In this document: piece after piece, positions 7,358 through 43,226 of the stretch
Layout: the number at the start of each line of letters is the position of its first letter
Position numbering within the stretch: position 1 is the first letter of the stretch
From: Komagataeibacter sp. FNDCF1
Lineage (GTDB): Bacteria; Pseudomonadota; Alphaproteobacteria; Acetobacterales; Acetobacteraceae
DNA: 64,000 nucleotides
Assembly: GCF_021295335.1 (NCBI RefSeq)
Contig: NZ_JAIWOT010000001.1
Span: 2,526,501 to 2,590,500, forward strand
Direction: 5' to 3'
Notes under the pieces: model-generated
The model's database searches: none
Told to the model about the DNA's origin: nothing
The model's input: the letters and a program-made list of their open reading frames with translations, nothing else
Made by a program: the position numbers and the translations under genes

Positions 7358-7440
7358 AAAAGCTTCCGGATGCCGCCGTTCTTCAACAGACGGGTCGTTT
7401 CCTGAAGTTTCCTGAAAAAAGCTTTACCGGAAACGTCCTT
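7358..7440. repeat. Dispersed nested palindrome, copy 1 (degenerate)
   Basis: Degenerate member of the family described under the copy at 27450-27526. The ends (AAAGCTTCCGG and CCGGAAACGT), the TGCCGCC half-stem and the AAAAAAGCTT half-stem are recognisable, but the central pairing is largely lost. It lies 22 bases beyond the hemN stop codon and before the start of the oxygenase gene. Confidence 0.6.
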
Positions 7441-7462
7441 ATGGTTTTCCCGGCATTTCAGT

Positions 7463-8830
7463 CTACAGGGCGCTGGCATGACGGGTGGCGCTGTCAGCCC
7501 CCAGATAACGGTCAAAGATCGCGGCCACATGCCGCACGAAGGGCCGCCCCTTTTCCGTAATCCGGATCTGGTGGCCGGTGACCTGCACCAGCCCGTCGCG
7601 CGCCATGCCCTGCAGGCGGCCCAGTTCGGGGTCAAGGCTGCTGGCGGGCAGGCCGTGCCGTGCCAGGACCTGCGCCACATCGACCCGCAGGGTGCACATG
7701 ACCTGTTCTATTATGGCGGCGCGCAGCCGGTCATCGCCGTCCAGCGCTACGCCGCGCACAACCGGCAGGCTGTCCGTATCCTGCGCCATGAGCCGGGCAT
7801 AGGCGGCGGAGGATACGGCATTCTGCGTCATGCCGCCCGGCAGCGCTGAAATGGCGGATGCACCAATCCCGATCAGGGCGGTGGCGGCATCAACCGTGTA
7901 ACCCTGAAAATTGCGGTGCAGCGTGCCTGTGGTCATGGCGCGGGCCATGCTGTCGTCAGGATCGGCATAATGGTCCAGCCCCACGGGCACGAAGCCCTCC
8001 GCGCGCAGTACGCCATCAATGGCCGCACGCTGTGCCACGCGTTCCGCCGGGCCGGGCAACTGGCCCGTGGGCATCAGGGCCTGACGCTTCTGCTTCCATG
8101 GCACATGGGCATAGCCGAACACGGCCAGCCGGTCCGGGCGCAGGCTGGCCACCGCCCGTGCCGTGCGGGCAACGCCCGCCACGTCCTGACGCGGCAGGCC
8201 ATAGATCAGGTCGATATTGACGGACGCCACGCCCGCCGCGCGCAGGGCGTCCAGACAGTCCCGCGTCTGGTCCCAGCCCTGTATGCGCCCGCAGGCTTCC
8301 TGCACGTCCGGGTCCAGGTCCTGCACGCCCATGCTGGCGCGGTTGAAGCCCAGTTCATGCAGCAGCGCAGGATATGCGGGCGGCAGGTGGCGGGGATCGA
8401 CCTCGATGCTGATTTCGGCATCCGCAGTGATGGTGAAATTCTGGCGTATGGCCTGCATCACCCGGCGCATCGTGCCCACGGGCAGCGTGGTGGGCGTGCC
8501 GCCACCCCATTGCAGGTGGCTTATGCTGTGGCCTGGGCCAAGGATCGCCACGACCCGGCGCAGTTCCTCCAGCAGCAGGGCGCCGTAGGCGGCCCGCGCA
8601 TCCGCATTGCGCAGCACGGCGGTATTGCACCCGCAGAACCGGCATAGCGTGTCACAGAAGGGAACGTGGAGATAAAGGGAAAGTGGCTGCGTGGCCGGCA
8701 GGGTGGAGAGCCATGCGCGGCTGTCCGCAGGGCCCACCGCATCGCTGAACTGCGCTGCGGTGGGGTAGCTGGTGTAACGCGGCAGGTTGCCCCCGTAGCG
8801 GGAAAGCAGGGTGCTGTCCGCCGCGTTCAT
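7463..8830 (-). CDS. hemN: Oxygen-independent coproporphyrinogen III oxidase
   Basis: Radical-SAM enzyme of haem synthesis that converts coproporphyrinogen III to protoporphyrinogen IX without oxygen. The start at 8830 (MNAADSTLLSRYGGN) gives 455 residues, the normal HemN size; a longer frame would run through ompW. The cluster cysteines are C59, C63, C66 with C68 next to them (CDTLCRFCGC), and the SAM region GGGTPTTLP follows. The C-terminal HemN domain is complete. It starts 4 bases after the ompW stop codon, so both genes should share the promoter with the FNR box at 9746-9759, which would make expression rise under oxygen limitation. Confidence 0.96.
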   Translation of the reverse strand: MNAADSTLLSRYGGNLPRYTSYPTAAQFSDAVGPADSRAWLSTLPATQPLSLYLHVPFCDTLCRFCGCNTAVLRNADARAAYGALLLEELRRVVAILGPGHSISHLQWGGGTPTTLPVGTMRRVMQAIRQNFTITADAEISIEVDPRHLPPAYPALLHELGFNRASMGVQDLDPDVQEACGRIQGWDQTRDCLDALRAAGVASVNIDLIYGLPRQDVAGVARTARAVASLRPDRLAVFGYAHVPWKQKRQALMPTGQLPGPAERVAQRAAIDGVLRAEGFVPVGLDHYADPDDSMARAMTTGTLHRNFQGYTVDAATALIGIGASAISALPGGMTQNAVSSAAYARLMAQDTDSLPVVRGVALDGDDRLRAAIIEQVMCTLRVDVAQVLARHGLPASSLDPELGRLQGMARDGLVQVTGHQIRITEKGRPFVRHVAAIFDRYLGADSATRHASAL

Positions 8831-8834
8831 GCCA

Positions 8835-9641
8835 TCAGAACCGGTAGGCGATACCGGCGGAGACGACGGTCGGGTCAAGCGAGTCGTGGGCGGTGACACG
8901 CACGCTCTCGTTGGAGGTTTCAGCCCATGCATGCATGCGCACGAACATCTGCTTGACGTCGAAGTTGAAGAACCAGTTGCCAACCAGCTGGTAATCCACA
9001 CCGACATTGACGGACGGGCCACCGGTAAAGCCGGCATTCAGCTTGCCGCCCGCGCCGACCGCGCCGACATTCGCGTTCATGTTGTGGAACCACATGAATG
9101 TGCCGCCAACACCCACATACGGGTTCAGGCGCTTGTGCGGACGGAAGTGCCAGGCCACCGTTACCGTGGGGGGCAGGACCCATGCGCTGCCGACATCCGT
9201 CTTGCCGCCAGCCATGCCGCCTTCGATCGCGACTTCATGGCGGGTGCTGGTGGCGATCAGGTCCAGCGAGATATTGTCGGTCACGAAGTATTCGAACGTC
9301 AGTTCCGGCATGGCCTGGTTGGTGGTCTTGACGCGGGTGCCGTTCAGCGTGGTGAGCGGCAGGCCCTTGCCCTGTTCCCAGACCTTGCTGTCACGGTCTT
9401 CGGGCAGTACGCCCACGGCGGACAGGCGGATCATGAAGTCACCACGGCCCAGGCCGATCTTGGTGGAGGAGCAGGTCTCGAAGATGCCGCAATGGCCCTT
9501 GGGCTGCGCCACGGCTACCGGGTTGGCAATCGGCGCATTGACGTAGGTGGAAGGCGTCGCGGTCTGCGCATGGACCGCAACGGGTGCGAGGGCCGCAGCA
9601 CCCAGTGCTGCCGACATGGCGAATTTGCGAATGTTCTTCAT
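8835..9641 (-). CDS. ompW: OmpW family outer-membrane protein
   Basis: Small outer-membrane beta-barrel of 268 residues. A signal peptide is clear (MKNIRKF, hydrophobic stretch, cleavage after about residue 25 at VHA-Q). The mature part has OmpW character, such as YFVTDNISLDLIATSTRHE and NPYVGVGGTFMWFHN, and it ends in the terminal aromatic residue (AYRF) needed for barrel assembly. OmpW proteins form a narrow hydrophobic channel and in enterobacteria are induced by FNR. Here a perfect FNR box lies 105 bases upstream, and hemN follows within 4 bases. Confidence 0.9.
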   Translation of the reverse strand: MKNIRKFAMSAALGAAALAPVAVHAQTATPSTYVNAPIANPVAVAQPKGHCGIFETCSSTKIGLGRGDFMIRLSAVGVLPEDRDSKVWEQGKGLPLTTLNGTRVKTTNQAMPELTFEYFVTDNISLDLIATSTRHEVAIEGGMAGGKTDVGSAWVLPPTVTVAWHFRPHKRLNPYVGVGGTFMWFHNMNANVGAVGAGGKLNAGFTGGPSVNVGVDYQLVGNWFFNFDVKQMFVRMHAWAETSNESVRVTAHDSLDPTVVSAGIAYRF

Positions 9642-23685: not shown

Positions 23686-23766
23686 GCCATTCGGGGAAAT
23701 GGCTTGACGCCTGAACAGCTTTCGGCCAAACGCATGCGATCATGCGCCGGGTTCCGCAGGCGTCAA
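23686..23766 (+). promoter_or_regulatory. Structured segment before metK: candidate cis-acting RNA
   Basis: Three nested or adjoining pairings are perfect: GCCATT-CGGGGA-AATGGC (23686-23703), then directly adjoining a 10-bp closing stem TTGACGCCTG (23704-23713) with CAGGCGTCAA (23757-23766), which encloses CGCATG-CGAT-CATGCG (23731-23746). The block ends 35 bases before the metK ATG. Position and compactness suggest a riboswitch-like or attenuator leader of the SAM synthetase gene. TATATT at 23773-23778 could be a -10 box, in which case the block would be DNA upstream of the promoter. I do not recognise it as SAM-II or SAM/SAH. Confidence 0.5.
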
Positions 23767-24989: not shown

Positions 24990-25000
24990 AAGACAATAAC

Positions 25001-25076
25001 AGTTTTTGGGTGCCGCCTTTTTTCAAAAAAGGCGGCGTTCTTCGACGCTTTTTGACAAAAGATTCACCAAAAACTT
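25001..25076. repeat. Dispersed nested palindrome, copy 2
   Basis: Orientation opposite to the copy at 27450. Outer ends AGTTTTTGG and CCAAAAACTT, a perfect GCCGCCTTTTTT/AAAAAAGGCGGC hairpin and a decayed GACGCTTTTTG hairpin. It begins 12 bases after the metK stop codon, where the T-rich hairpin can act as terminator. Confidence 0.85.
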
Positions 25077-25202
25077 CTTCAGGTATTGGGGGCCTGTCAT
25101 GACTGCTTGCAAAAGCAGGTCGTGGCGGCCCCTCACATGAGGAGTTTCACGTCAATGGCCACTTTCACTGCGAGATCATTTTTTCTTCTCCGTGTTTTGG
25201 AT

Positions 25203-26737: not shown

Positions 26738-27442
26738 ATGACCGCCTCCGTGGATGTAAAGGCATCGCCAGAACGGCTTTACGGGCGCCAGCGCGGCCAT
26801 CCGCTGCGCCCCCGCCAGCAGCGGCTTCTGGACCAGACCCTGCCGCGCATGCGGTTCCCCGAGGCGGCGATACCTGACCCGGCTTCAGCTTTTGGCCATG
26901 CACCCCAGCAGATCTGGCTGGAAGTAGGGTTTGGCGGGGGTGAGCATTCGCTGGCCCAGAATGCAGCCAATCCCGATGTCGGCTATATTGCGTGTGAGGT
27001 GTTCGAGAACGGGCTGTGTTCCCTGCTCTCACGCGTTGTGCCCGAAGGGGGGGAAGAAACCGCCCCCGTGCCCGACATGCTGCGGATATGGGATGAGGAT
27101 GCGCGTATGCTGCTGCGTGGCCTGCCCGATGCCTCGATTGACCGGCTGTTCCTCATGTTTCCTGACCCATGGCCCAAGTCACGCCATGCCAAGCGTCGCT
27201 TCGTCCACCCCGAGACGGTAAAGATGGCCGCCCGCATCCTGCGCCCGGGTGCTACCTGGCGTGTGGCAAGTGATGATCCCACCTACCAGGCATGGGTGGA
27301 GGAAGTCATGGGCGCGCAGGACCTGTTCGAGACGGCACCCCCTGCCACCGTCCGCCCCGAAGGCTGGCCCCCGACCCGCTATGAGGCTAAGGCGTTTGCC
27401 GCAGGCCGCAAGCCACTGTACTGGACGTTCATCCGCCGCTGA
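26738..27442 (+). CDS. trmB: tRNA (guanine-N7)-methyltransferase
   Basis: Methylates G46 of tRNA using SAM. The ATG at 26738 (MTASVDVKASPERLYGRQRG) gives 234 residues; the longer frame starts inside the insertion sequence. The SAM motif is LEVGFGGGEHSLAQ, the family motif FLMFPDPWPKSRHAKRRFVH is complete, and the substrate-binding TRYEAK region is at the C-terminus. The IS ends only about 60 bases upstream, so the native trmB promoter may have been displaced from metK-side sequences. Confidence 0.97.
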   Translation: MTASVDVKASPERLYGRQRGHPLRPRQQRLLDQTLPRMRFPEAAIPDPASAFGHAPQQIWLEVGFGGGEHSLAQNAANPDVGYIACEVFENGLCSLLSRVVPEGGEETAPVPDMLRIWDEDARMLLRGLPDASIDRLFLMFPDPWPKSRHAKRRFVHPETVKMAARILRPGATWRVASDDPTYQAWVEEVMGAQDLFETAPPATVRPEGWPPTRYEAKAFAAGRKPLYWTFIRR

Positions 27443-27449
27443 GAGGACA

Positions 27450-27526
27450 AAAGTTTTTGGTGAAGCTTTTTTCAAAAAGCTTCAGGAACGCCGTCTTTTT
27501 GAAAAAAGACGGCGCCCAAAAACTTT
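27450..27526. repeat. Dispersed nested palindrome, copy 3 (reference copy)
   Basis: Best-formed copy. Outer inverted repeat AAGTTTTTGG ... CCAAAAACTT; inside, hairpin one is GAAGCTTTTTTCAAAAAGCTTC and hairpin two is GCCGTC-TTTTTGAAAAAA-GACGGC. Read in the other direction the same element begins AAGTTTTTGGGTGCCGCC. It starts 8 bases after the trmB stop codon and ends 11 bases before the convergent SDR gene's stop, so it can terminate both. Confidence 0.9.
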
Positions 27527-27536
27527 TATCTGCTGA

Positions 27537-28478
27537 CTACGATAGCGACGTGCCGGTCAGCCGTTCGGCCGCCTGCCACAACCGCCGCGCTACCCCCAGG
27601 TCACGCGCGGCGGCGGGGATGAAGGCATCGGCCACATGGCCCCGGCGTTCGCCACGCCCGCTGGGGCCGTAATAGCCACCATCGCGGGCTTCGGGCGCCA
27701 TGGCGGCGAATTCGATCGGCAGCGCGCCATGGGCGGCGGACTGGCCCATCAGCCGGAAGGCCCAGACCGCGCCAAGGCGGGTCATCCTTTCCTGCAGTCC
27801 CTGCTTTGTGGACAGGCGGCTGGTGGAAATATCCGTCATGGCCCAGCCCGGATGGGCGGCGATAGAGTGCAGGTTCCAGTTATGGGTGCGGGCCTGCCGG
27901 TCCAGTTCCAGCGCCAGGATCAGGTCCGCCAGTTTGCTCTGCCGGTAGGCGCGGAACGGCGCGTAGCGCCGCCGGGCCTGCAGGTCATCAAACACGATAT
28001 GGCCATCCAGCGCCGCCAGGCTTGCCACCGTGACCACCCGCCCCCCCTGCGGCGCGGCGCATAGCAGCGGGCGCAGCCGGGCGGTCAGTGCGAACGGGCC
28101 AAGGAAATTGGTGCCGAACTGCAGTTCGAACCCGTCACGCGTTTCCATGCGGCGCGGGGTGCCCATCACGCCCGCATTGTTGACCAGCACGTCCAGCCTG
28201 TCGGTTTCCTGCGCCAGTTCGTGGGCGAAGGTGGCAATGGAGGACAGGCTTGCCACATCCAGCAGCCGGAAGGAGGCCTGTGCCCCCGGCACGTCACCCT
28301 GCAGGCGCACCAGTGCCGCCATGCCCTTTTCGGGGTTGCGGCCCGCCAGCATGACGGTCGCCCCACGGCTGGCAAGGCCCAGCGCGGTCTCGTATCCAAG
28401 GCCGCCGGTCGCCCCCGTTACCAGGGCCAGGCGGCCATCCATGCGGGGAGCCTGCCTGATGGTCCAGTGTCTGGTCAT
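27537..28478 (-). CDS. Short-chain dehydrogenase/reductase
   Basis: 313-residue SDR oxidoreductase. The nucleotide-binding motif is VTGATGGLGYETA, the structural motif NNAGVMG follows, and the catalytic YRQSK (YxxxK) is near residue 180. The size and the arrangement resemble retinol-dehydrogenase-like or WW-oxidoreductase-like SDRs in bacteria, whose substrates are generally unknown. Its start overlaps the stop of the DedA gene by four bases, so the two are translated together. Confidence 0.88.
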   Translation of the reverse strand: MTRHWTIRQAPRMDGRLALVTGATGGLGYETALGLASRGATVMLAGRNPEKGMAALVRLQGDVPGAQASFRLLDVASLSSIATFAHELAQETDRLDVLVNNAGVMGTPRRMETRDGFELQFGTNFLGPFALTARLRPLLCAAPQGGRVVTVASLAALDGHIVFDDLQARRRYAPFRAYRQSKLADLILALELDRQARTHNWNLHSIAAHPGWAMTDISTSRLSTKQGLQERMTRLGAVWAFRLMGQSAAHGALPIEFAAMAPEARDGGYYGPSGRGERRGHVADAFIPAAARDLGVARRLWQAAERLTGTSLS

Positions 28479-29239: not shown

Positions 29240-31231
29240 ATGACCCAGTCCGATGGCAGCGACAGGCCAGGCCCCGTAACCGCCCCGTATGGCACATGGC
29301 CTTCGCCCGTCAGCGCGGAACTGGTGGCAGGAAAGACGATTTCCCTGTCCGATGTACGGGTGGATGGGCATGATGTCTACTGGGTGGAAGGCCGCCCGGC
29401 CGAAGGGGGCCGCCGCGTGCTGGTGCGCGCCCGGGGTGGACAGGTGGTGGATGTAACGCCTGCCCCCCTTGATGTTGGTACCCGGGTGCATGAATACGGC
29501 GGCGGCGCCTATGCTGTGTGCCGGGGGCGTGTCGTGTTCAGCAACCGGCGTGATGGCAGCGTGTGGCTGGTGGAAGGCGGGCAGTCGCGCTGCCTGTGTG
29601 CTGGTACGGGGCTGCGTTATGCCGACCTGACCTTCAGCCCCGACGGGCGCTTCGTGTTCTGCGTGCGTGAGGACCATCGGGTGGAGGACGGGGAACCGGC
29701 TGCCGCCATTGTCGTGCTGGACTGCACGGATACGACCGACCCGGCCTTCATTACCGGCACGCCGCTGGTGATGGGGCCGGATTTCCTGTCCTCTCCGCGT
29801 CCTTCGCCCGATGGGCGGTACCTGGCCTGGATCGAGTGGGATCACCCCGCCATGCCGTGGGACGGCACGCGCCTGCGCGCGGCTTCCCTGCTGCAGGAAG
29901 GGGATGACCCCCCACGCCTTGCCGCTCCCTGGAGCGTGGCAGGGGAGGACGGCCAGCCGGAATCCGTTATCGAACCGTGCTGGGACCGGGACGGGCATCT
30001 GCTGGCCCTGTCGGATCGCAGCGGGTGGTGGAACCTCTACCGCTTTGATACGACAGGCGCCCCCCCGGCAGCCCTGGCCCCGATGCAGGCCGAGATCGGT
30101 CAGCCACACTGGGTGTTCGGCCTGCGCAGCTATGTGCCGCTGGAAGATGGCAGCATCCTTGCCATGGTCATCAGCGAAGGCGCGGCGCGCATGGTGTCCA
30201 TCCGTGATGGTGTGGCGAACCCGGTTGCACTGGGCCACCCCGCCGCCTGCCCGCTTCCGGTGGAGGGGGCAGGGTTCGCGTGGCTTGATGCCCCACCCGA
30301 TGATGCGGCGGCGGTGGTATGTGGCCAGCCGGGGCAGCCGGTCCATGTGCTGCGCCGTGCGGCGACACTTCCCCTTGCAACAGACGATATTGCCCGCGCC
30401 ACAACGGTCCGCTTCCCCCTGCCGGACGGGAAAGGGACCGGGCACGCCTTTTTCTATGCGCCTGCCAGTGCTCGCTACCGGGGGGCTGCGGGCGAGAAGC
30501 CGCCGCTGGTGGTCATGGCCCATGGCGGCCCCACCGGGCGGGCCAGCACGGCGTTTTCGTTCAAGGTGCAATGGTGGACGTCCCGCGGGTTCGCGGTGGT
30601 TGATGTCAATTATGGTGGTTCCACCGGTTTTGGCCGCTCCTACCGCCAGAGGCTGGAAGGCCAGTGGGGCGTGGTGGATGTGGATGACTGCATTGCCGCC
30701 TGCCGGTACCTGGCTGATGCCGGACGGGTGGACCCGGCCCGCATTGTCATACGTGGCAGCAGTGCGGGCGGGCTTACGGTCCTGCTTGCCCTTGCGCGTT
30801 CGGACCTGTTTGCCGCGGGCACCAGCCTGTATGGCGTGACCGACCTGCGCGCGCTGGCGCGCGATACCCACAAATTCGAATCCCGCTATCTTGATACGCT
30901 GGTCGGTCCCTACCCGGCGGATGAAGCCACCTATCTGGCCCGTTCGCCCATTACCCGGGTGGCGGATATCAGGGCGCCGGTGCTGTTCCTGCAGGGACTG
31001 GACGACACGGTGGTGCCGCCCACGCAGGCGGAGTCCATGGTTGCCGCACTTCGCGCGCAGGGCGTGCCATGCGCGCTGTACGAATTTGCGGGCGAAGGTC
31101 ATGGCTTTCGGCAGGAGACAACCATCCGCCAGGCATGGGAACTGGAACTGGCTTTCTACCAGCAGGTTCTTAAGATGCCGGTCGCGCCCGCGCTCAAGGT
31201 TGAACTGACGGTGGATGCGCCTGTGGCGTAA
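29240..31231 (+). CDS. S9 family prolyl oligopeptidase-like peptidase
   Basis: 663 residues from the ATG at 29240, which has AGGAG eight bases upstream; an earlier in-frame GTG lacks this. The N-terminal half is a beta-propeller-like region (segments such as DLTFSPDGRFVFCVRED). The C-terminal alpha/beta hydrolase has GGSTGFGRSYRQRL, the nucleophile elbow GSSAGG (Ser near 508), Asp in FLQGLDDTVVPP and His in GEGHGF. It is most like acylaminoacyl peptidases. No signal peptide is seen, so it is probably cytosolic. Confidence 0.92.
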   Translation: MTQSDGSDRPGPVTAPYGTWPSPVSAELVAGKTISLSDVRVDGHDVYWVEGRPAEGGRRVLVRARGGQVVDVTPAPLDVGTRVHEYGGGAYAVCRGRVVFSNRRDGSVWLVEGGQSRCLCAGTGLRYADLTFSPDGRFVFCVREDHRVEDGEPAAAIVVLDCTDTTDPAFITGTPLVMGPDFLSSPRPSPDGRYLAWIEWDHPAMPWDGTRLRAASLLQEGDDPPRLAAPWSVAGEDGQPESVIEPCWDRDGHLLALSDRSGWWNLYRFDTTGAPPAALAPMQAEIGQPHWVFGLRSYVPLEDGSILAMVISEGAARMVSIRDGVANPVALGHPAACPLPVEGAGFAWLDAPPDDAAAVVCGQPGQPVHVLRRAATLPLATDDIARATTVRFPLPDGKGTGHAFFYAPASARYRGAAGEKPPLVVMAHGGPTGRASTAFSFKVQWWTSRGFAVVDVNYGGSTGFGRSYRQRLEGQWGVVDVDDCIAACRYLADAGRVDPARIVIRGSSAGGLTVLLALARSDLFAAGTSLYGVTDLRALARDTHKFESRYLDTLVGPYPADEATYLARSPITRVADIRAPVLFLQGLDDTVVPPTQAESMVAALRAQGVPCALYEFAGEGHGFRQETTIRQAWELELAFYQQVLKMPVAPALKVELTVDAPVA

Positions 31232-31269
31232 ACCTGAAACATCATTTCAGAGTGCTAAAGAAGGAATAA

Positions 31270-31345
31270 ACGTTTTTGGGTGCCGCCTTTTTTCAAAAAG
31301 GCGGCGTTCATTGAAGCTTTTTTTAAAAAGCTTCACCAAAAACGT
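31270..31345. repeat. Dispersed nested palindrome, copy 4
   Basis: Ends ACGTTTTTGG and CCAAAAACGT; inner hairpins GCCGCCTTTTTT/AAAAAGGCGGC and GAAGCTTTTTTT/AAAAAGCTTC are both intact. It lies between the convergent S9 peptidase and hldE genes, ending 12 bases before the hldE stop codon. Confidence 0.9.
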
Positions 31346-31357
31346 CTGTCCCGTTCA

Positions 31358-32791
31358 TCAGGGGCGTGCGGCTGCCTTGACAAGGGCGGTCGTGGACCGG
31401 CCCGATACGATATCGACCAGCACCACACGCCCGCCACCGGCCTTTACAATATGACCGCCCACCACCTGGTCCTCGCGGTAATCAGCACCCTTGACCAGAA
31501 TATCGGGCATGATGGCGCGGATGGCGTCCAGCGGTGTGTCCTCATCAAACAGTACCACCAGATCAACAGCGCGTAGCGCGCCGATTACGGCGGCGCGTGC
31601 CAGTTCATCCTGAATGGGGCGGCTTTCCCCTTTCAGCCGTCTGACGGAACGGTCCGTATTCAGGGCAACGATCAGCTTGTCCCCCTGTGCCGCCGCTGCC
31701 TGCAGAAGGGAGATATGACCCGGATGCAGCAGGTCGAAGCAGCCATTGGTAAACACGACCCGCATGCCATGATGCCGCCAGTCGCTGGCAATGCTGGCGG
31801 CCTGTTCCAATGTGACAAGTTTGCCCGAATCCTGTGTATCGCGCATGAGTGCGCTACCCAGTTCCGCACGCGAGACCGTGGCCGTGCCCAGCTTGCCGAC
31901 CGAGATCGAGGCCGCCGTGCCGGCAATGGTCACCGCCGTTTCGACCGGCTGGCCGGCGGACAGGATGGTGGCCAGCGTCGCCACCACGGTATCCCCTGCC
32001 CCCGATACGTCAAACACCTCGGCAGCCCTTGCCCGGACATGGGTTACGCGCCCGTCCGTCTGCCACAGGGTCATGCCTTCATCCGACCGGGTGACCAGCA
32101 CATTGCCGCCAAACTGGGCGCTGGCGGCCTGTGCCGCCGCCGCCACCTGCGCATCCGTGTCCAGCGGCAGGCCGGTGGCACGCGCCATTTCGTGGCGGTT
32201 GGGCGTGATCAGGCTTGCGCCACGATAGGCGGCAAATGAACTGCGCTTGGGGTCGACAATGACTGGGATGCCACGGGCATGGGCGCGCGCAAAAATCGCT
32301 GCCAGCATGGCATCATTCAGCACACCCTTCCCATAATCCGAGCAGACCACGATATCGGCGCGGTCAATGGCAGCATGGACCTGCTCCACCAGCCGGGTTG
32401 TAATGGCCGGGTCGAGCGGTGTGGTGTCCTCGTTATCAATCCGCACGATCTGCTGGCGGCCGCTCATCACACGGGTCTTGGTAATGGTGGGGCGGCTGGC
32501 ATCCGTGACCAGCCCGTCCGTGCTGATGTGCTCCCAGCGCCCCAGCGTGCGGATCAGTTCAGGCGCGAATTCATCAGCCCCCACCAGACCGGTCAACAGC
32601 ACGCATGCGCCCAGGGCTGCGGCATTTGTTGCGACATTGGCAGCCCCGCCCGCAACGGTGGTGAGTTTTTCATGCAGCACGACGGGAATGGGTGCTTCGG
32701 GCGAAATGCGGCTGACAGTGCCAGAAATGTACCGGTCCAGCATCACATCACCAATCACGGCGATGGTCCCGAACTGCATGTTGTCAATCAT
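31358..32791 (-). CDS. hldE: Bifunctional heptose-7-phosphate kinase / heptose-1-phosphate adenylyltransferase
   Basis: Two-domain enzyme making ADP-heptose for the LPS inner core. The start at 32791 (MIDNMQFGTIAVIGDVMLDR) gives 477 residues, the length of E. coli HldE; a longer frame adds 45 unlikely residues. The N-terminal PfkB/ribokinase domain shows VAGGAANVATNAAALG and the anion-hole motif VSGAGDTVVA. The C-terminal cytidylyltransferase-like domain shows FTNGCFDLLHPGHISLL with HPGH. Dispersed palindrome copies lie on both sides. Confidence 0.96.
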   Translation of the reverse strand: MIDNMQFGTIAVIGDVMLDRYISGTVSRISPEAPIPVVLHEKLTTVAGGAANVATNAAALGACVLLTGLVGADEFAPELIRTLGRWEHISTDGLVTDASRPTITKTRVMSGRQQIVRIDNEDTTPLDPAITTRLVEQVHAAIDRADIVVCSDYGKGVLNDAMLAAIFARAHARGIPVIVDPKRSSFAAYRGASLITPNRHEMARATGLPLDTDAQVAAAAQAASAQFGGNVLVTRSDEGMTLWQTDGRVTHVRARAAEVFDVSGAGDTVVATLATILSAGQPVETAVTIAGTAASISVGKLGTATVSRAELGSALMRDTQDSGKLVTLEQAASIASDWRHHGMRVVFTNGCFDLLHPGHISLLQAAAAQGDKLIVALNTDRSVRRLKGESRPIQDELARAAVIGALRAVDLVVLFDEDTPLDAIRAIMPDILVKGADYREDQVVGGHIVKAGGGRVVLVDIVSGRSTTALVKAAARP

Positions 32792-32967
32792 GACCTGTCC
32801 ATCATTCCCGTGGCTGCCAGCCGCATCCTGATCAGGGGCGCGGCATTGCGCAACCCCCTGCCCGGCCAGTAACCGGTCCACATGAAGAAAGCTTTCCCGA
32901 TCTGTAATCAGGAAAGCTTCCATCAAGGCGTCAGGACCGAACCCTGGAGACCAGTTTCAAAATAAAG

Positions 32968-33045
32968 AAGTTTCTGGGTGCCGCCTTTTTTCAAAAAGGC
33001 GGCGTTCTTTGAAGCTTTTTGGGAAAAAGCTTCACCAAAAACTTT
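32968..33045. repeat. Dispersed nested palindrome, copy 5
   Basis: Ends AAGTTTCTGG and CCAAAAACTT; hairpins GCCGCCTTTTTT/AAAAAGGCGGC and GAAGCTTTTT/AAAAAGCTTC are intact. It lies 21 bases beyond the stop codon of the sugar porter gene and upstream of hldE on the same strand. Confidence 0.9.
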
Positions 33046-33066
33046 TATTATTTTTCAAACAGTCTC

Positions 33067-34545
33067 TTACTCTTCTTCTTCCACGATGGCGGTGTTGCCG
33101 CGCGTGGGGCGGAAGCGGCCTTCACGCAGCGCTTCCTCGATATCCTCCAGCGAGGCACCACGCGTTTCCGGCACCATGAAATACACGAACAGCACCGACA
33201 GCAGGTTCACGCCCGCATAGAACCACATGGTCCCGCCCAGCGTGATCTTGGTCACCAGCGTCAGCGCCGTGCTGGTCACCAGCAGGTCACTGCCCCACAG
33301 CATGGCCGAATGCAGGCTGGTGGCGTTGCCACGCATGGAAAGCGGGAACATTTCCGCCCCCAGCAGCCAGCCCACGACCTGGATACCGCCCGCGTTGAAC
33401 ACCATGAACAGCAGCATGAACGCGATGATCAGCCAGCTGCCCGGACTGCCCGGCTGCGGATGCACCAGGAACATGATGCCAAGCCCGATCAGGCTGAGCA
33501 CGCTGCCCGGCCCCATGACCAGCACCAGACGGCGGCGACCGATCCGGTCCACGATGTTCGAGCCCAGCACGGTCATGACCAGATAGATGATGGAGATGCC
33601 GATGCTGGCCATCAGCGCCGAGGAACTGCCAAACCCCGCATCCGACAGGAAGGTGGGGGCGTAGTAGATCATCATTTCCAGCCCGCCCGCCTGCGTGAAG
33701 AAGGCGACGCCCAGGGCCGCGACCAGCGCCGGGCGCACCCAGGGCTGGCGGATGCCGCGCCAGCCGATGTCGCGCGGGTCGGTTTCCTCGTTGGCATTGG
33801 CGTGGATGCGGCGCATCTCGCGGCGGATGTCGCGCTCGGAGGTGCGGATGCGCTGCAGCTGTTCCAGTGCGGAATCAAGGCTTTCATGTTCCGCCGCCCA
33901 GCGCGGGCTCTTGGGCAGGAAGAACATGGAGATGAACACCACCGCCGCCGGGATGGCCGCAATGGCCACCATCGGCCGCCAGCCCCACGCATCACGCGCG
34001 GCAAAGCCGATGATGTTGGCGGCAAAGATGCCGATGCCGATGGCGATGTTGAACATCGTCACCATGTGACCGCGCTTGTGCGCGGGCGCCAGTTCGGAAA
34101 TGTACATCGGCACTACCTGCGTGGAGCCACCCACCGCAAGCCCGAGGAACACGCGTGAGACGATAAGCGTGTAGACCCCGGGCGAGAAGGCGCAGGCCAG
34201 CGCGCCCAGCACGAAGATCGCGGTCACGATCATGATGGATTTGCGCCGCCCGAAATGTTCGGACATCCAGCCGGTCAGCAGCGAACCCATGACCGCGCCC
34301 GCCAGGATGGCGGAGGCCACCATTTCCTGCAGGAAGCTGCTCAGGTGGAAATCGCGGGTAATGAGCAGCAGCGCGCCTGAGACAATGCCGGTATCGTAAC
34401 CATAGAGGCCGCCGCATATGGCGGCCACGATGGCTGCGAGCCACAGGGTCTTGCGGGCATTGGGGGCAATGTCGATCTGGGACAGGTCGGGTAACGGCTC
34501 GGTCTGCTGCTGGTCTGCTCGGGCGGCTGGTGCTTGGGTGTTCAT
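33067..34545 (-). CDS. Sugar porter family MFS transporter
   Basis: 492 residues, twelve predicted membrane helices. Sugar porter signatures are GGLYGYDTGIVSGALLL, GWMSEHFGRRKS, SRVFLGLAVGG, the PKSPRW motif after helix 6, and PETRGASLEDIEEAL after helix 12. It is of the GalP/AraE/XylE type, probably a proton symporter for a hexose or pentose. An acidic C-terminal end (VEEEE) is unusual. A second, clearly diverged porter of the same family is at 39280. A palindromic element lies 21 bases after the stop. Confidence 0.93.
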   Translation of the reverse strand: MNTQAPAARADQQQTEPLPDLSQIDIAPNARKTLWLAAIVAAICGGLYGYDTGIVSGALLLITRDFHLSSFLQEMVASAILAGAVMGSLLTGWMSEHFGRRKSIMIVTAIFVLGALACAFSPGVYTLIVSRVFLGLAVGGSTQVVPMYISELAPAHKRGHMVTMFNIAIGIGIFAANIIGFAARDAWGWRPMVAIAAIPAAVVFISMFFLPKSPRWAAEHESLDSALEQLQRIRTSERDIRREMRRIHANANEETDPRDIGWRGIRQPWVRPALVAALGVAFFTQAGGLEMMIYYAPTFLSDAGFGSSSALMASIGISIIYLVMTVLGSNIVDRIGRRRLVLVMGPGSVLSLIGLGIMFLVHPQPGSPGSWLIIAFMLLFMVFNAGGIQVVGWLLGAEMFPLSMRGNATSLHSAMLWGSDLLVTSTALTLVTKITLGGTMWFYAGVNLLSVLFVYFMVPETRGASLEDIEEALREGRFRPTRGNTAIVEEEE

Positions 34546-37244: not shown

Positions 37245-37730
37245 ATGGGGATTGATGCCCTCACCTTCCGTAACGCCATGGCGCGGCTGGGCGCTGCGGT
37301 AAATGTGGTAACTACCGGCACGCTGGATGATCCGGCGGGTTTTACCGCATCCGCCGTGTGTTCGGTAACCGATACGCCGCCAACAATCCTGGCCTGTCTC
37401 AACCGTGGCTCCCGCGTGCGGGACCGCTTCCGGGTGGATGGGGCCATGTGCATCAATGTGCTGGCAGGCGACCAGCAGGACATCTCCGGCGTGTTCGCAA
37501 GCCCGCTGGAGCAGGCGGAGCGCTTCCGCGCCGGTCACTGGTCCACGTTGACCAGTGGCGCCCCGGTGCTGGAGGAAGCCGTGCTGTCGCTTGACTGCCG
37601 GATCGAGCGGATTGTGGAGGTCGGCACCCACAGCGTGATGTTTGGCGTGGTGGAAAGCCTGCGCAGCAGTACGCCGCGTGGTGGGCTGGTCTATTTCAAC
37701 CGCACCTACCACACCCTGCCGCACGAATAA
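37245..37730 (+). CDS. Flavin reductase domain protein
   Basis: 161 residues of the flavin reductase-like (DIM6/NTAB, HpaC/RutF) family, which use NAD(P)H to reduce FMN or FAD for a two-component monooxygenase. The family pattern can be read from FRNAMARLGAAVNVVTTG, GFTASAVCSVTDTPPTILAC and CINVLAGDQQDIS, to the terminal PRGGLVYFNRTYHTL. No partner monooxygenase is adjacent, so the role is open. A palindromic element begins 18 bases after its stop codon. Confidence 0.9.
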   Translation: MGIDALTFRNAMARLGAAVNVVTTGTLDDPAGFTASAVCSVTDTPPTILACLNRGSRVRDRFRVDGAMCINVLAGDQQDISGVFASPLEQAERFRAGHWSTLTSGAPVLEEAVLSLDCRIERIVEVGTHSVMFGVVESLRSSTPRGGLVYFNRTYHTLPHE

Positions 37731-37748
37731 CATAGGTCAAACGTAAGG

Positions 37749-37824
37749 AAGTTTCTGGTGAAGCTTTTTTCAAAAAGCTTCGGAGAACGCCGTCTTTTTG
37801 AAAAAAGGCGGCACCCAAAAACTT
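37749..37824. repeat. Dispersed nested palindrome, copy 6
   Basis: Ends AAGTTTCTGG and CCAAAAACTT; hairpin GAAGCTTTTTT/AAAAAGCTTC intact and GCCGTC/GGCGGC hairpin with a G-T pair. Same orientation as the copy at 27450. It begins 18 bases after the flavin reductase stop codon. Confidence 0.9.
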
Positions 37825-37926
37825 CTCTCCCTTCTCAATGATGTACGTTCAGCCTCCTTCTTAAGGGAAAATCCAGCCTTCTGCCGTAGGCTCGACCGGA
37901 TACACCGGGGTTGAGGGACGTTGATC

Positions 37927-39279: not shown

Positions 39280-40704
39280 ATGGACAATCAGACCGCCGCC
39301 ACCACTACCACCACGTTTGATACGAACCGGCTGCGCACACTTATCATTGGCTGCCTTGCAGCGCTTGCGGGCCTAATGGCCGGTCTGGATATCGGGGTCA
39401 TCTCCGGTGCGCTGGACCTGCTGGCCAGCACCTTTCACGCCACAACGGTCGAGCAGGAATGGATTGTCAGCGCCATGATGGCGGGCGCCGCCGTGGGGTC
39501 GCTGTGCGGGGGGTGGATGTCGCACCAGATCGGGCGCAAGCATGCGCTGCTGGTGGGCGCCGCCGTATTCGTGATCGGGTCGCTGGCCTGCGCGCTGGCA
39601 TGGTCCATCCCGTCCATGATCGCGGGCAGGCTCATCATGGGGCTGGCCATTGGCGTCGCAGCCTTCACCGCGCCGCTCTACCTGTCCGAAATTGCCAGCG
39701 AGCAGGCGCGCGGGGCCATGATCTCGACCTACCAGCTCATGATCACAGCGGGCATCTTCATCGCCTTCCTCAGCAACACCATGTTCAGCTATTCCGGCAA
39801 CTGGCGCGGCATGTTCGCGGTTGCCGCCGTGCCGGGCGTGCTGTTCCTGATTGGCGTGCTGTTCCTGCCCTACAGCCCGCGCTGGCTCATGATGCGTGGC
39901 CGCCGCAAGGAAGCGCTGGCCGTGCTGGAGGACCTGCGCAACGACCATGGCGTGGCCATGCAGGAAATCCAGAACATCAGCCGCCAGCTCCAGCAGAAGC
40001 AGCGTGGCTGGAGCCTTTTGCGCAACAACGCCAATTTCCGCCGCTCCATCTTCCTGGGCATGACATTGCAGGTCATGCAGCAGCTGGCGGGCGTGAACGT
40101 GGTAATGTACTACGCGCCCAAGATCTTCGCGCTGGCGGGCTATGTCGGACCGGCGCAGCTGTGGTGCACGGCCATGGTGGGGCTGGTGAACATGCTGGCC
40201 ACCTTTATCGCCATCGGGCTGGTGGACCGCTGGGGCCGCAAGCCGATCCTGTATACCGGCTTCATCATCATGGCGGTGGGCATGGGCTGCCTTGGCGTCA
40301 TGCTCAACCGGTCCAATCTGGGGCAGACGGAACAGATCATCGCCGTGTTCATGCTGCTGATCTACATCTCCGGCTTCGCCATGTCGGCCGGCCCCCTGAT
40401 CTGGGTGCTGTGTTCGGAAGTGCAGCCGCTGCAGGGGCGTGACCTGGGCATTTCCATCTCCACGCTGACCAACTGGATCGCCAACATGATCGTGGGGGCA
40501 AGCTTCCTGTCGCTGCTGCAGTGGATGGGTAATGGCCCGACATTCTGGCTGTTTGCCGGGTTCAACCTGTTTTTCGTGCTGGTGACATGGCGCTTTATCC
40601 CTGAAACGCGGGACATGTCGCTGGAAAAGATCGAGCAGCGCCTGATGGCGGGCCTGCCGCTGCGTGAGATCGGGCGCGGCAAACCGCTGCCGGATGGGCA
40701 GTAA
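39280..40704 (+). CDS. Sugar porter family MFS transporter
   Basis: 474 residues, twelve predicted helices. Signatures include MAGLDIGVISGALDLLAS, GGWMSHQIGRKHA, GRLIMGLAIGVAAFTAPLYL, LPYSPRW, and the C-terminal PETRDMSLEKIEQRL. The helix-7 region QVMQQLAGVNVVMYYAPKIF matches GalP/AraE sugar-binding residues. It is a probable proton-coupled galactose, arabinose or glucose importer. It is only distantly similar to the porter at 33067, so not a recent duplicate. A palindromic element starts 8 bases after its stop. Confidence 0.94.
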   Translation: MDNQTAATTTTTFDTNRLRTLIIGCLAALAGLMAGLDIGVISGALDLLASTFHATTVEQEWIVSAMMAGAAVGSLCGGWMSHQIGRKHALLVGAAVFVIGSLACALAWSIPSMIAGRLIMGLAIGVAAFTAPLYLSEIASEQARGAMISTYQLMITAGIFIAFLSNTMFSYSGNWRGMFAVAAVPGVLFLIGVLFLPYSPRWLMMRGRRKEALAVLEDLRNDHGVAMQEIQNISRQLQQKQRGWSLLRNNANFRRSIFLGMTLQVMQQLAGVNVVMYYAPKIFALAGYVGPAQLWCTAMVGLVNMLATFIAIGLVDRWGRKPILYTGFIIMAVGMGCLGVMLNRSNLGQTEQIIAVFMLLIYISGFAMSAGPLIWVLCSEVQPLQGRDLGISISTLTNWIANMIVGASFLSLLQWMGNGPTFWLFAGFNLFFVLVTWRFIPETRDMSLEKIEQRLMAGLPLREIGRGKPLPDGQ

Positions 40705-40711
40705 GTTGTAA

Positions 40712-40789
40712 AAGTTTTTGGTGAAGCTTTTTTCAGAAAGCTTCGAAGAATGCCGCCTTTTTGAAAAAAGGCGGCACCCAGAAACTTTT
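40712..40789. repeat. Dispersed nested palindrome, copy 7
   Basis: Ends AAGTTTTTGG and CCAGAAACTT; hairpins GAAGCTTTTTT/AGAAAGCTTC (one mismatch) and GCCGCCTTTTT/AAAAAAGGCGGC. It fills the gap between the convergent sugar porter and folC genes. Confidence 0.9.
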
Positions 40790-40808: not shown

Positions 40809-42131
40809 TTACTCTGGCTGCCAGCCATCAAGCTGGAGTGCCACCCCGGCCAGATACAGGCTGCCGCATATGATTACCCATGCCGGTGCGGGATCAGGAC
40901 CCGCACTGCCTGCCAGATGGGCCAGTGCCGCATGCAGCGTGGGGCCTGCGGTGGCCCGACCACCCGATGCGGCGACAATCTCCGCTACGGGCTGGGCCAG
41001 GTGCTGCCCCTCCTCCGCCACGGCCTGAATGCTGGCCGCACCCGGCAGCAGCGGGGCCAGGAAGCCGGTGGCGTCTTTCGTCTGTTTCATGCCGATGACC
41101 AGATGCGTGGGCCGGTCGGGCCATGCCGCCATGACGTGGGCCAGCACCTCGCCCGCACCCGGGTTATGGCCGCCATCCAGCCACAGTTCCCAGCCATCGG
41201 GCAGTAGCGCTGCCAGCCTGCCTGTCAGGCGCTGCATGCGCGCGGGCCAGCGTGCCTGTGCGATTCCCGCCCATGCCTTTTCGGGCAGGGGCAGCCCACC
41301 TGCGCGCAGGGTGGCGATGGCAAGCCCGGCATTATCGACCTGATGCGCGCCGGGCAGGCCCGGTAGTGGCAGGTCCAGCGTGCCATGGGCGTCGCTGTAC
41401 TGCAGGCCGGTCTGATCCTCACGCAGCGAGATCGACCATTCATGGTCCCGCCGGGACAGGGGGCTGGTCTTTTCATCCGCCGTGCGGGTCAGCACGTCCA
41501 TCACTTCGGTCGGCTGGCGACCGGTGGCCACGGGCACGCCGTGTTTGATGATCCCGGCCTTCTCGGTCGCGATGGCCGTGAGCGTATCGCCCAGAAAAGC
41601 CTCGTGGTCCATCGAAATGGCGGTAATGGCGCAGGCGGCGGGGTGCTGGAGCACATTGGTGGCGTCATACCGGCCGCCCAGCCCCACTTCCACAATGGCC
41701 AGATCCGCCGGATGGCGGGCGCATAGTACGAAGCCCGCCGCCGTCAGCACCTCGAACACGGTAATCGGTGCACCGGCATTGACGCGCTCGATTTCCTCCA
41801 GCACTGCCGCCAGTTCGTGCTCGGGCACGATCCGGCCCGCGATGCGGAAACGCTCGGTCACATGCACAAGGTGGGGCGAGGTCAGCACATGCACCCGCCA
41901 CCCCGCCGCTTCGCCAATGGCACGCATGAAGGCGCAGGTGCTGCCCTTGCCATTGGTACCCGCCACATGCACCACCGGCGGCAGGTGGCGCTCGGGGTGG
42001 CCAAGGCGGGCCAGAAGATTTTCCAGCCGTGTCAGGGACAGGTCGATCAGGGCCGGATACAGCCGGTTCAGCCGTTCGAGTATCTGCCCGGTCCGGCCTA
42101 CGAATTCCGGCCCGAGGGTGGGTGTGTTCAT
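40809..42131 (-). CDS. folC: Bifunctional folylpolyglutamate synthase/dihydrofolate synthase
   Basis: Adds glutamate to dihydropteroate and to folates. It has 440 residues, normal length. The P-loop is VAGTNGKGSTCAFM, and LTSPHLVHVTERFRI and the VGLGGRYDATNVL segment follow; the C-terminal ligase domain contains WELWLDGGHNPGAGE. It lies 24 bases downstream of accD on the same strand, an accD-folC order that is widespread in proteobacteria. Confidence 0.96.
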   Translation of the reverse strand: MNTPTLGPEFVGRTGQILERLNRLYPALIDLSLTRLENLLARLGHPERHLPPVVHVAGTNGKGSTCAFMRAIGEAAGWRVHVLTSPHLVHVTERFRIAGRIVPEHELAAVLEEIERVNAGAPITVFEVLTAAGFVLCARHPADLAIVEVGLGGRYDATNVLQHPAACAITAISMDHEAFLGDTLTAIATEKAGIIKHGVPVATGRQPTEVMDVLTRTADEKTSPLSRRDHEWSISLREDQTGLQYSDAHGTLDLPLPGLPGAHQVDNAGLAIATLRAGGLPLPEKAWAGIAQARWPARMQRLTGRLAALLPDGWELWLDGGHNPGAGEVLAHVMAAWPDRPTHLVIGMKQTKDATGFLAPLLPGAASIQAVAEEGQHLAQPVAEIVAASGGRATAGPTLHAALAHLAGSAGPDPAPAWVIICGSLYLAGVALQLDGWQPE

Positions 42132-42155
42132 GCGCGATGGCCCAGAGATTAAGGA

Positions 42156-43025
42156 TCAGGCGGCAGCGTGCTGCGTGATGTGGCGGTAATTGAGCTGGCC
42201 GATCAGGCGGGCCAGCGTCTCGTGCAGGTCACCGCGCTTGACCACCATGTCCAGCATGCCGTGCTCAAGCAGGTATTCCGCGCGCTGGAAGCCTTCGGGC
42301 AGCTTTTCGCGCACCGTATCCTCGATCACGCGCTGGCCTGCAAAGCCGATCAGCGCATTGGGTTCGGCAATCTGCACATCGCCCAGCATGGCAAAGGATG
42401 CGGAAACACCACCCGTGGTCGGGTTGGTCATCACCACGATATAGGGCAGCCCCGCATCATGCAGCATGTCCACCGCCACCGTGGTGCGCGGCATCTGCAT
42501 GAGGCTGATCATGCCTTCCTGCATGCGGGCACCGCCAGATGCGGTAAAGACGACCAGCGGCGCCTGCTGCAGGATGGCCAGGCGGGCGGCGGCAATGAAG
42601 GCCTCACCCAGCGCTGCCCCCATCGTGCCGGCAATGAATTCGAACGCCATCACGGCGACAACCGCGTTGTGGCCACCGATCAGGCCGTGGGCCACGACCA
42701 TGGATTCGTCCAGATGTGACTTGGCGCGCTCATCCTTCAGCCGGTCGGTATAGCGCTTGCGGTCGCGAAAGGAGAGGGGATCAACCGCGACCTTGGGCAG
42801 TTCGATGCGGGTATATTCCCCGTTATCGAAGGTCCATTCCAGGCGCTCCGCTACGCTGGCGCGCATGTGGTGGCCGCAATGCGGGCACACGTTCAGCGCC
42901 TTGTGCAGGTCCTTGGTCAGGATCATCTGCTCGCACGATTCGCAGTTGGTCCACAGGTTGTCCGGCACTTCCCGCTTGAGCAGGCCGCGGATCTTGGGAC
43001 GGACATATTCGGTCAGCCAGCTCAT
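42156..43025 (-). CDS. accD: Acetyl-CoA carboxylase carboxyltransferase beta subunit
   Basis: Beta half of the carboxyltransferase that makes malonyl-CoA for fatty-acid synthesis. It has 289 residues. The N-terminal zinc ribbon is CESCEQMILTKDL followed by CPHCGHH, and the crotonase-like core shows ASGGARMQEGMISLMQM and NPTTGGVSASFAMLGD. It is the first gene of accD-folC. The trpA gene lies about 200 bases upstream, with a palindromic element between, matching the common trpFBA-accD-folC order of alphaproteobacteria. Confidence 0.97.
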   Translation of the reverse strand: MSWLTEYVRPKIRGLLKREVPDNLWTNCESCEQMILTKDLHKALNVCPHCGHHMRASVAERLEWTFDNGEYTRIELPKVAVDPLSFRDRKRYTDRLKDERAKSHLDESMVVAHGLIGGHNAVVAVMAFEFIAGTMGAALGEAFIAAARLAILQQAPLVVFTASGGARMQEGMISLMQMPRTTVAVDMLHDAGLPYIVVMTNPTTGGVSASFAMLGDVQIAEPNALIGFAGQRVIEDTVREKLPEGFQRAEYLLEHGMLDMVVKRGDLHETLARLIGQLNYRHITQHAAA

Positions 43026-43147
43026 TTTGCCTCTCCCTTAAGCTTTCTGGAGGCCTGTTCCATACAGGTAGATGAACGATTGGGCCAGATTGTCATTGCA
43101 GGGCGTGTCCCGGAAAAATGCCGGTGAAACGTCCTCCAGGTCATAAG

Positions 43148-43226
43148 AAGGTTTCTGGTGAAGCTTTTTTCAAAAAGCCTTCAGAAAGACACCGCCTTTC
43201 CGGAAAAAGGCGGCGCCCGAAAACTT
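43148..43226. repeat. Dispersed nested palindrome, copy 8
   Basis: Ends AAGGTTTCTGG and CCGAAAACTT; hairpin GAAGCTTTTTT/AAAAAGCCTTC with one bulge and GCCTTTCC/GGAAAAAGGC. Its right end abuts the trpA stop codon, which falls in the A/T-rich end of the element. Confidence 0.85.

What the first reader, a model, noticed from the sequence alone, without database searches (positions are those of the whole stretch)
7358..43226. A family of nested palindromes placed just 3' of genes, nine copies in 64 kb
Copies at 7358, 25001, 27450, 31270, 32968, 37749, 40712, 43148 and (partial) 49270 share one design: an outer inverted repeat AAGTTTTTGG/CCAAAAACTT enclosing two separate hairpins, one built on GAAGCTTTTT/AAAAAGCTTC and the other on GCCGCCTTTTT/AAAAAGGCGGC. 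Both orientations occur. Every copy lies within roughly 6-40 bases after a stop codon, and several lie between convergent genes. The T-runs inside make them look like double terminators. Their near-identity at unrelated sites means they spread or are kept uniform. Unlike ordinary terminators, copies share loop and arm sequences. Placement after genes and repeat identity are seen; mobility (for example by a transposase acting on the palindrome) and terminator function are inference.
Basis: partly seen in the sequence, partly recalled or inferred. Interest (0 to 1): 0.8.

Follow-up and report, generated by a model that had tools for sequence, protein, structure and literature searches.

The report
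Dispersed paired-hairpin repeats at gene ends
This stretch of an acetic-acid bacterium's chromosome carries scattered copies of a short DNA element that folds into a stem holding two hairpins and sits just after genes, mostly where two genes point at each other, where it probably stops transcription from both sides; relatives with different hairpin sequences occur in other genera of the same bacterial family.

Summary
Seven strong copies, one degenerate copy (7358) and one probable relic (49270) lie in the window, a Komagataeibacter near K. rhaeticus. A covariance model finds 105 places in the genome: 80 between convergent genes, 24 tandem, 1 divergent, none called genic. Convergent gaps hold only 11.5% of intergenic bases in a spaced 400-kb sample. 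The element is an inverted pair of two related ~40-nt palindromic units: an outer stem AAAAGTTTTTGG/CCAAAAACTTTT around two hairpins, with T-rich sequence beyond the stem on both strands. Best reading: a REP/BIME-like dispersed element acting as a two-way terminator or 3'-end structure (termination inferred, not shown). Mobiliser unknown: RAYT/IS200 transposases are absent from 19 of 19 genus genomes, and no target duplication was found. Presence and orientation at a site change between species, and same-site copies are hardly more alike than different-site copies, which points to concerted evolution or a recent burst. The architecture recurs with other stem sequences elsewhere in Acetobacteraceae (unit pattern in 125 of 395 genomes, some at chance level) and not above chance in other Alphaproteobacteria sampled. 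In one g21 genome the convergent preference is absent. Filed as a new variant of extragenic palindromic repeats.

The parts
24998..25078 (-). strong copy, after metK stop (23742-24989 +), convergent gap
   Evidence: R1 88.8 bits; fold z -3.87; metK by Pfam
27449..27527 (+). strong copy between a methyltransferase gene (Methyltransf_4, 26672-27442 +) and a short-chain dehydrogenase gene (27537-28478 -), convergent
   Evidence: R1 100.0 bits; Pfam; no element and a 25-base anchor gap in 5 Komagataeibacter loci, opposite orientation in K. diospyri
31268..31347 (-). strong copy between S9 peptidase gene (29240-31231 +) and hldE-like gene (31358-32926 -), convergent
   Evidence: R1 103.2 bits; outer arm pair changed on both sides (ACG/CGT)
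32966..33046 (-). strong copy after sugar-transporter gene (33067-34545 -), tandem
   Evidence: R1 98.8 bits; Pfam Sugar_tr
37747..37826 (+). strong copy after flavin-reductase-like gene (37245-37730 +), tandem
   Evidence: R1 101.7 bits; Pfam; same orientation in K. rhaeticus, opposite in 3 K. xylinus loci, no R1 match in 9 (two of these show remnants)
40710..40789 (+). strong copy between sugar-transporter gene (39280-40704 +) and Mur-ligase-like gene (40809-42131 -), convergent
   Evidence: R1 104.2 bits; + in 5 and - in 9 of 14 Komagataeibacter, window included
43147..43228 (+). strong copy at the 3' end of trpA (43227-44066 -), tandem; within a segment of about 150 bp missing in K. rhaeticus
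   Evidence: R1 77.2 bits; alignment breaks at 43097/43250 against K. rhaeticus; Pfam Trp_syntA
7358..7438 (-). degenerate copy after a HemN-like gene (7463-8830 -), tandem
   Evidence: R1 38.9 bits, not in the model; fold z -1.6; Pfam
49262..49340 (+). probable decayed relic in a convergent gap between two glycosyltransferase genes
   Evidence: R1 13.9 bits with filters off; not found genome-wide at E<=0.1; Pfam

Best explanation
The copies are one family of dispersed, non-coding, composite palindromes, REP/BIME-like in kind, with relatives in Acetobacteraceae. Shown: each element is an inverted pair of two related ~40-nt units (AAAAGTTTTTGG + hairpin N-CTTTTTTCAAAAAG-N') closed by an outer stem, with T-rich sequence just outside the stem on both strands on average; it sits mostly within tens of bases after stop codons, in the window's genome mainly between convergent genes; presence and orientation at a site change between species, while core sequences stay near one consensus. 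Inferred: transcribed from either side, the element folds into a branched stem followed by a U-rich tract and ends or trims the transcript, a two-way terminator that keeps convergent genes from reading into each other. Inferred: copies are kept alike by gene conversion or repeated re-insertion (or spread in a recent burst), and in-place inversion comes from recombination or template switching between the outer arms. The copying machinery is unknown, and no RAYT was found in this genus.
For: 105 places, 80 convergent, 24 tandem, 1 divergent, 0 called genic. Spaced 400-kb sample: convergent gaps are 50 of 336 junctions and 11.5% of intergenic bases, binomial p 2.5e-53; against a 3'-end-only expectation of 30%, p 1.5e-22. 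Of 104 copies with a facing stop, 87 lie within 40 nt, median 17.5. T fraction in the 12 nt outside the stem 0.47 and 0.38 on the two strands versus 0.23 and 0.20 farther out; at least 5 T on both sides in 24 of 79 versus 2 of 79 (p 1.8e-6). Pairs changed on both sides: 64 cells versus 36 in shuffles, 0 of 500 as high (80 copies). The two halves resemble each other: score 16.5 versus maximum 11.0 of 2000 base shuffles (these shuffles do not keep the palindrome). At least 11 state changes at 5 junctions on a gene tree. K. diospyri at 27442: flanks as in relatives, core inverted. Same-site identity 0.864 (153 pairs) versus other-site 0.857 (1035 pairs). Same architecture with other stems in further genera.
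Against: No transcript ends were seen; termination is inferred. The stem next to the U-rich tract is A/U-rich and branched, unlike textbook terminators, and 55 of 79 copies do not have at least 5 T on both sides. In the g21 genome G038 0 or 1 of 18 copies is convergent depending on the score table; 14 are tandem with short gaps, 2 divergent, 2 genic. A strong terminator there could be polar; gene calls there are rough. In G378 convergent is 12 of 26 (11 tandem, 1 divergent, 2 at contig edges). The G-U versus A-C asymmetry expected of RNA selection was not clear. Copies were selected by score, which narrows identity differences, and 18 of 51 have the same site as best match against 13% expected, so some vertical signal remains. 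Six of seven window copies are shared with K. rhaeticus.
Confidence: 0.6

Rival explanations
1. A non-autonomous transposable element (MITE) moved by an insertion-sequence transposase that recognises the outer inverted repeat; placement reflects target choice or purifying selection, and termination is incidental.
For: Terminal-repeat-like outer arms; many copies in both orientations; presence/absence between species; copies on plasmids of Novacetimonas and Komagataeibacter, 2 of 5 records typed conjugative.
Against: No target duplication at any fixed offset in 72 copies, though old copies could have lost it; hairpin stems change wholesale between genera while the A/T runs persist. An autonomous element with the same ends was not searched for.
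Confidence: 0.25
2. A REPIN: a REP doublet spread by a RAYT (Y1 tyrosine transposase).
For: Inverted pair of related palindromic units; extragenic, 3' of genes.
Against: PF01797 absent from the own genome and from 19 of 19 genus genomes, while 5 of 14 control genomes ring; among 25 high-copy family genomes 6 have any match, mostly weak, versus 2 of 25 with no unit. No GTAG or CGTC in the consensus.
Confidence: 0.07
3. Functional terminators that arose at each site and converge on one sequence by selection, without any copying.
For: Position, T-rich tracts, covariation.
Against: Loop, linker and stem sequences are shared across unrelated sites, and two g21 copies are identical over 72 nt, which selection on structure alone does not require.
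Confidence: 0.05
4. DNA-level element: a binding site for IHF, gyrase or another nucleoid protein placed where convergent transcription piles up supercoils; RNA structure is a by-product.
For: An IHF-like site (motif recalled, WATCAANNNNTTR) lies within 60 nt on the right side of 17 of 139 Komagataeibacter-set copies, 0 of 139 on the left, 0 of 278 control windows; in G378 8 of 44 sides versus 0 of 44 controls; convergent preference.
Against: 122 of 139 copies lack the exact motif, and none of 16 G038 copies has it; T-rich tracts and base-pair covariation fit RNA at least as well.
Confidence: 0.15

Closest known systems
REP/BIME elements (enterics, pseudomonads and others)
   Same: Short dispersed extragenic palindromes, often in inverted pairs, 3' of genes, mainly between unidirectional and convergent ORFs (PMC3733652, passages seen); attenuator role proposed but disputed (PMC1525189, passages seen).
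   Different: No GTAG/CGTC tag in the consensus; closed by a long A/T outer stem into a three-way junction; no RAYT in the genus; stem sequences differ between genera on a largely constant A/T-run skeleton. CGTC repeats too are said to lack a dedicated transposase (PMC3733652), so lack of a RAYT alone is not new.
REPIN (REP doublet moved by RAYT)
   Same: Two inverted related units behaving as one dispersed element.
   Different: No RAYT in 19 of 19 genus genomes. The REPIN definition is recalled, with the search listing of PMC3116915.
MITEs, including ERIC/RU-1 type
   Same: About 100 bp, terminal inverted repeats, intergenic; an IHF-like motif in part of the copies (the abstract of PMC2229807 in a listing, mentions IHF sites in such elements).
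   Different: No target duplication found; transposase unknown; the outer stem holds two hairpins.
Bidirectional intrinsic terminators between convergent genes (recalled)
   Same: A-rich tract, stem, T-rich tract on both strands.
   Different: Branched stem, and similar copies dispersed over the genome.

Membership tests
REP/BIME-like extragenic palindromic repeats | dispersed, high copy, extragenic | tested here: met
   105 places, 0 called genic
REP/BIME-like extragenic palindromic repeats | palindromic units paired in inverted orientation | tested here: met
   halves alike in inverted orientation; covariation
GTAG/CGTC-tagged REP superfamilies | GTAG or CGTC tetranucleotide at the hairpin foot | tested here: not met
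   neither occurs in the 80-copy consensus on either strand (read); PMC3733652 states that CGTC repeats are missing in Acetobacteraceae
REPIN/RAYT system | cognate Y1 transposase (PF01797) in the genome | tested here: not met
   0 of 19 genus genomes
MITE | terminal inverted repeats | tested here: met
   outer arms pair in 81% of cells
MITE | target-site duplication of fixed length | tested here: not met
   no offset stands out in 72 copies; old copies could have lost it
MITE | related autonomous element with the same ends | not tested
   no search was made
Intrinsic terminator | stem followed by a T-rich tract | tested here: met
   enriched on both strands; at least 5 T of 12 in 56, 39 and (both) 24 of 79 copies versus 13, 9 and 2 in controls
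Intrinsic terminator | transcripts end there | not testable with these tools
   no RNA data
Rfam families | match at gathering score | tested here: not met
   0 matches in the window

The most novel reading that the evidence does not exclude
An Acetobacteraceae-wide class of mobile bidirectional terminators: paired-hairpin elements on a constant A/T-run skeleton, whose stem sequences are swapped between lineages, that copy themselves by a RAYT-independent route into convergent gene junctions, are kept uniform by concerted evolution, and flip in place through their outer arms.
Probability: 0.3. Interest if true: 0.8.

Novelty: new variant of a known kind. Interest (0 to 1): 0.6.

Why it matters
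GTAG-tagged palindromes are tied to RAYT transposases, while CGTC-tagged ones are said to lack a dedicated transposase (PMC3733652, passages); whether such repeats end transcription is disputed (PMC1525189, passages). Here is a further, untagged family with no RAYT in the genus, a very strong bias to convergent gene ends in the window's genome but not in a g21 genome, and a skeleton that persists while stem sequences change. That makes two open questions testable in culturable cellulose producers: how palindromic repeats spread without a RAYT, and whether they serve as two-way terminators. The copies could also serve as terminator parts for Komagataeibacter engineering, and their sites may mark gene gain or loss (for example the hldE-like gene flanked by two copies).

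Tried and rejected
RAYT/REPIN: rejected for this genus. Fixed target-site duplication: lengths 2-6, 8 and 9 at all offsets within 80 nt in 72 copies; the best scores are what tens of thousands of comparisons give. Known RNA family: none at gathering score. Phage carriage: no match for one Komagataeibacter copy. G-U versus A-C asymmetry as a sign of RNA-level selection: convergent copies 174 versus 126; tandem copies read in the transcript's sense 40 versus 34; inconclusive. Gene calling in G038 with a locally trained table gave antisense ORFs as genes, so placement was redone with two other score tables; even then 2 to 4 of 18 are called genic, and I trust these calls less. Weak R1 hits in distant genera were first suspected to be chance; reading them showed the same architecture. 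Model R2 was used only for G038 and G378.

Literature: searches (the held open-access library only). Passages seen in PMC6528568, PMC3733652, PMC1525189, PMC12306157; other papers only as search listings. None of what I saw describes this element; six sequence strings from it were found in no held paper. PMC12306157 counts 1,369 REPs in Lichenicola cladoniae (an Acetobacteraceae as far as I recall) and may have counted palindromes of this kind; its motifs were not seen. Subscription journals are not covered.
Full report
WHAT WAS CHECKED. The window (64 kb, 60.9% G+C) is at 2526501-2590500 of the main contig (3,529,188 bases) of a 3.74-Mb genome. Its SelO protein has its best named match in K. 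rhaeticus, 92% identical, then other Komagataeibacter at 84-87% (very near records may be left out there), so it is a Komagataeibacter. The seven strong copies align over about 80 nt with 87% mean column identity. A covariance model, R1, was built from them.

GENOME-WIDE. R1 gives 135 matches at E<=0.1 in the window's genome. Because the element is nearly symmetric many places match on both strands; they are 105 distinct places, 55 + and 50 -, all on the main contig. Only 150 of 674 first-look candidates were scored, so 105 may be a lower bound. With a home-made codon-usage gene caller, 80 places lie between convergent genes, 24 between tandem genes, 1 between divergent genes, none within genes. 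In 20 evenly spaced 20-kb stretches, junctions are 230 tandem, 56 divergent and 50 convergent; convergent gaps hold 11.5% of intergenic bases (binomial p 2.5e-53). In that sample 4 of 50 convergent and 2 of 230 tandem junctions carry a copy. If only gene 3' ends were sought, about 30% would be convergent (p 1.5e-22). Of 104 copies with a facing stop codon 87 lie within 40 nt; the median is 17.5 nt.

ANATOMY. The consensus of 80 copies (of 86 with at least 40 bits; 6 of odd length left out) is AGAAGTTTTTGGTGAAGCTTTTTTCAAAAAGCTTCAGAGAACGCCGCCTTTTTGAAAAAAGGCGGCACCCGAAAACTTTT. The first half and the reverse complement of the second are alike (score 16.5, maximum of 2000 base shuffles 11.0): the element is an inverted pair of related units. 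Pairs hold in 81% (outer stem), 90% and 90% (hairpins) of cells; 64 cells carry changes on both sides against 36 in shuffles (0 of 500 as high), and slid partners pair in 47-61%. Copies chosen by a structure model lean towards it. Outside the outer stem the sequence is A-rich on the left and T-rich on the right, so that either strand tends to have a T-rich tract after the stem: T fraction 0.47 and 0.38 in 12 nt versus 0.23 and 0.20 farther out; at least 5 T on both sides in 24 of 79 copies versus 2 of 79. Part of the copies have a right-hand tail like TTTTTTATCAAT. An IHF-like site (motif recalled) lies on the right within 60 nt in 6 of 92 own and 11 of 47 copies in L059-L072, never on the left and in none of 278 control windows; in G378 on 8 of 44 sides, in G038 on none of 32.

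BETWEEN SPECIES. Loci orthologous to the window were fetched from 13 Komagataeibacter records, N. hansenii and G. diazotrophicus. Thirteen junctions were compared; seven carry the element in at least one species, six in none. Five of the seven were mapped on a three-gene tree; the two next to inserted genes (24989 and 31231) were not. 23654|23742: filled in 4 and empty in 9 of 13 tips (1 change). 27442|27537: + in 6, - in 1, none in 6 of 13 (3 changes). 37730|38118: + in 2, - in 3, no R1 match in 9 of 14 (2 changes); the alignment shows a degraded copy in K. nataicola and a remnant in K. melomenusus among these 9, and N. hansenii, with a 31-bit match, was left out. 40704|40809: matched in all 14, + in 5 and - in 9 (2 changes; scores 31 to 104 bits). 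43025|43227: filled in 11 and empty in 3 of 14 (3 changes). That is at least 11 changes; gain and loss are not told apart. At 27442|27537 the loci without the element have the two stop codons adjoining, and K. diospyri has a left flank like that of FXV3 and K. intermedius and a right flank like that of K. swingsii, but the core turned round: an in-place inversion. For 51 cores (of at least 65 bits, N. hansenii left out), identity is 0.864 for the same site in different species (153 pairs) and 0.857 for different sites (1035 pairs), AUC 0.54, p 0.11; the best match is the same site in 18 of 51, against 13% expected. Window against K. rhaeticus alone: 0.88-0.95 at six shared sites, mean 0.90 for non-corresponding pairs. 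So the copies are spread or homogenised, with some vertical signal left; a recent burst, or strong constraint on the consensus, could give part of this pattern.

BEYOND THE GENUS. In a sample of 249 family genomes, with stricter filters, 30 match. Reading 29 loci from 8 of these genomes shows one architecture with other stems: GTTC and CTCCC in g21; GCTTC and GTTC in g34 and g80; GTTC with CTTC in g5; for example GTGGGGGC or GCAGC with GCCGCC in g68; mostly on an AAGTTTTT...CTTTTTTCAAAAAG skeleton. Two g21 copies are identical over 72 nt. The unit pattern AAGTTTTTN{2,16}TTTTTTCAAAAA occurs in 125 of 395 genomes of the order sample (every row shown is of the same family), 29 of 84 genera, up to 172+148 times in one genome, while the reversed control pattern is nearly absent; some of the 125 have a single match, which is the chance level. 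In 385 genomes of the class sample 8 match: the window's own with 19, and 7 with one match each (one of these in the same family), about the level of the control pattern. Copies occur on Komagataeibacter and Novacetimonas plasmids (5 records) and a half unit on Pseudoroseomonas cervicalis plasmids (2 records; in the one looked at it lies between convergent annotated genes); no match in phage records.

RESULTS AGAINST A SIMPLE STORY. Placement differs by genome: G378 12 convergent, 11 tandem, 1 divergent, 2 at contig edges of 26 (against 3 convergent of 18 other junctions, p 0.05); G238 4 of 4 convergent, but G156 4 of 4 tandem; G202 2 convergent of 3, G090 3 of 4, G136 0 of 3, G161 1 of 4, G022 1 of 3; G038 0 convergent of 18 (14 tandem, 2 divergent, 2 genic) with short gaps on both sides, or 1 of 18 with other score tables. 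These loci are the best-scoring ones of each genome. No transposase was identified: PF01797 is absent from 19 of 19 genus genomes and from 19 of 25 high-copy family genomes; other families were not tested. No target duplication was found. Termination rests on anatomy and place alone.

JUDGEMENT. I am confident (about 0.9) that this is a real family of dispersed composite palindromes with its relatives in Acetobacteraceae; about 0.6 that its main effect in Komagataeibacter is two-way termination or 3'-end formation; about 0.3 that it moves by a dedicated transposition-like process. It is a new variant of extragenic palindromic repeats, not a member of the tagged REP superfamilies nor of the RAYT-linked REPINs on the features tested.

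Noticed in passing
window 25133-26682, gene 25439-26605 (-): An IS110/IS1111-type transposase gene (Pfam Transposase_20, DEDD_Tnp_IS110) sits in a segment not aligned in K. rhaeticus, starting about 55 nt beyond the element copy at 24998-25078, not inside it.
   Followed up: partly
window 31268-33046: An hldE-like gene (PfkB + cytidylyltransferase domains, 31358-32926) is flanked by two copies in the same orientation. K. rhaeticus has two copies and a gap of like length (1914 bases); the other 11 Komagataeibacter loci that span it have gaps of 113-274 bases with one copy or none, in the opposite orientation where present. Suggests gene gain or loss between copies.
   Followed up: partly
window genome, main contig: Copies are unevenly spread: 7 of 105 in the first 1.0 Mb (expected 29.8) and 61 of 105 in 2.25-3.25 Mb (expected 29.8). 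Unexplained.
   Followed up: no
genomes G433, G169, G275: Several unit types with different stem sequences coexist in one genome (for example GGTTC with GGTGAAGC and GGGTGCYGCC; or GCTTC, GTTTC, GCTAC and GGTTC).
   Followed up: no
L217 1113-1244 (Pseudoroseomonas cervicalis plasmid): A convergent gap holds one unit of this type next to two other strong palindromes, a mosaic like a BIME.
   Followed up: partly
hit H11, Clostridioides difficile 4.4-kb plasmid: A 44-nt match (91%) to half of a g68 unit; possibly a chance likeness of T/A-run hairpins.
   Followed up: no
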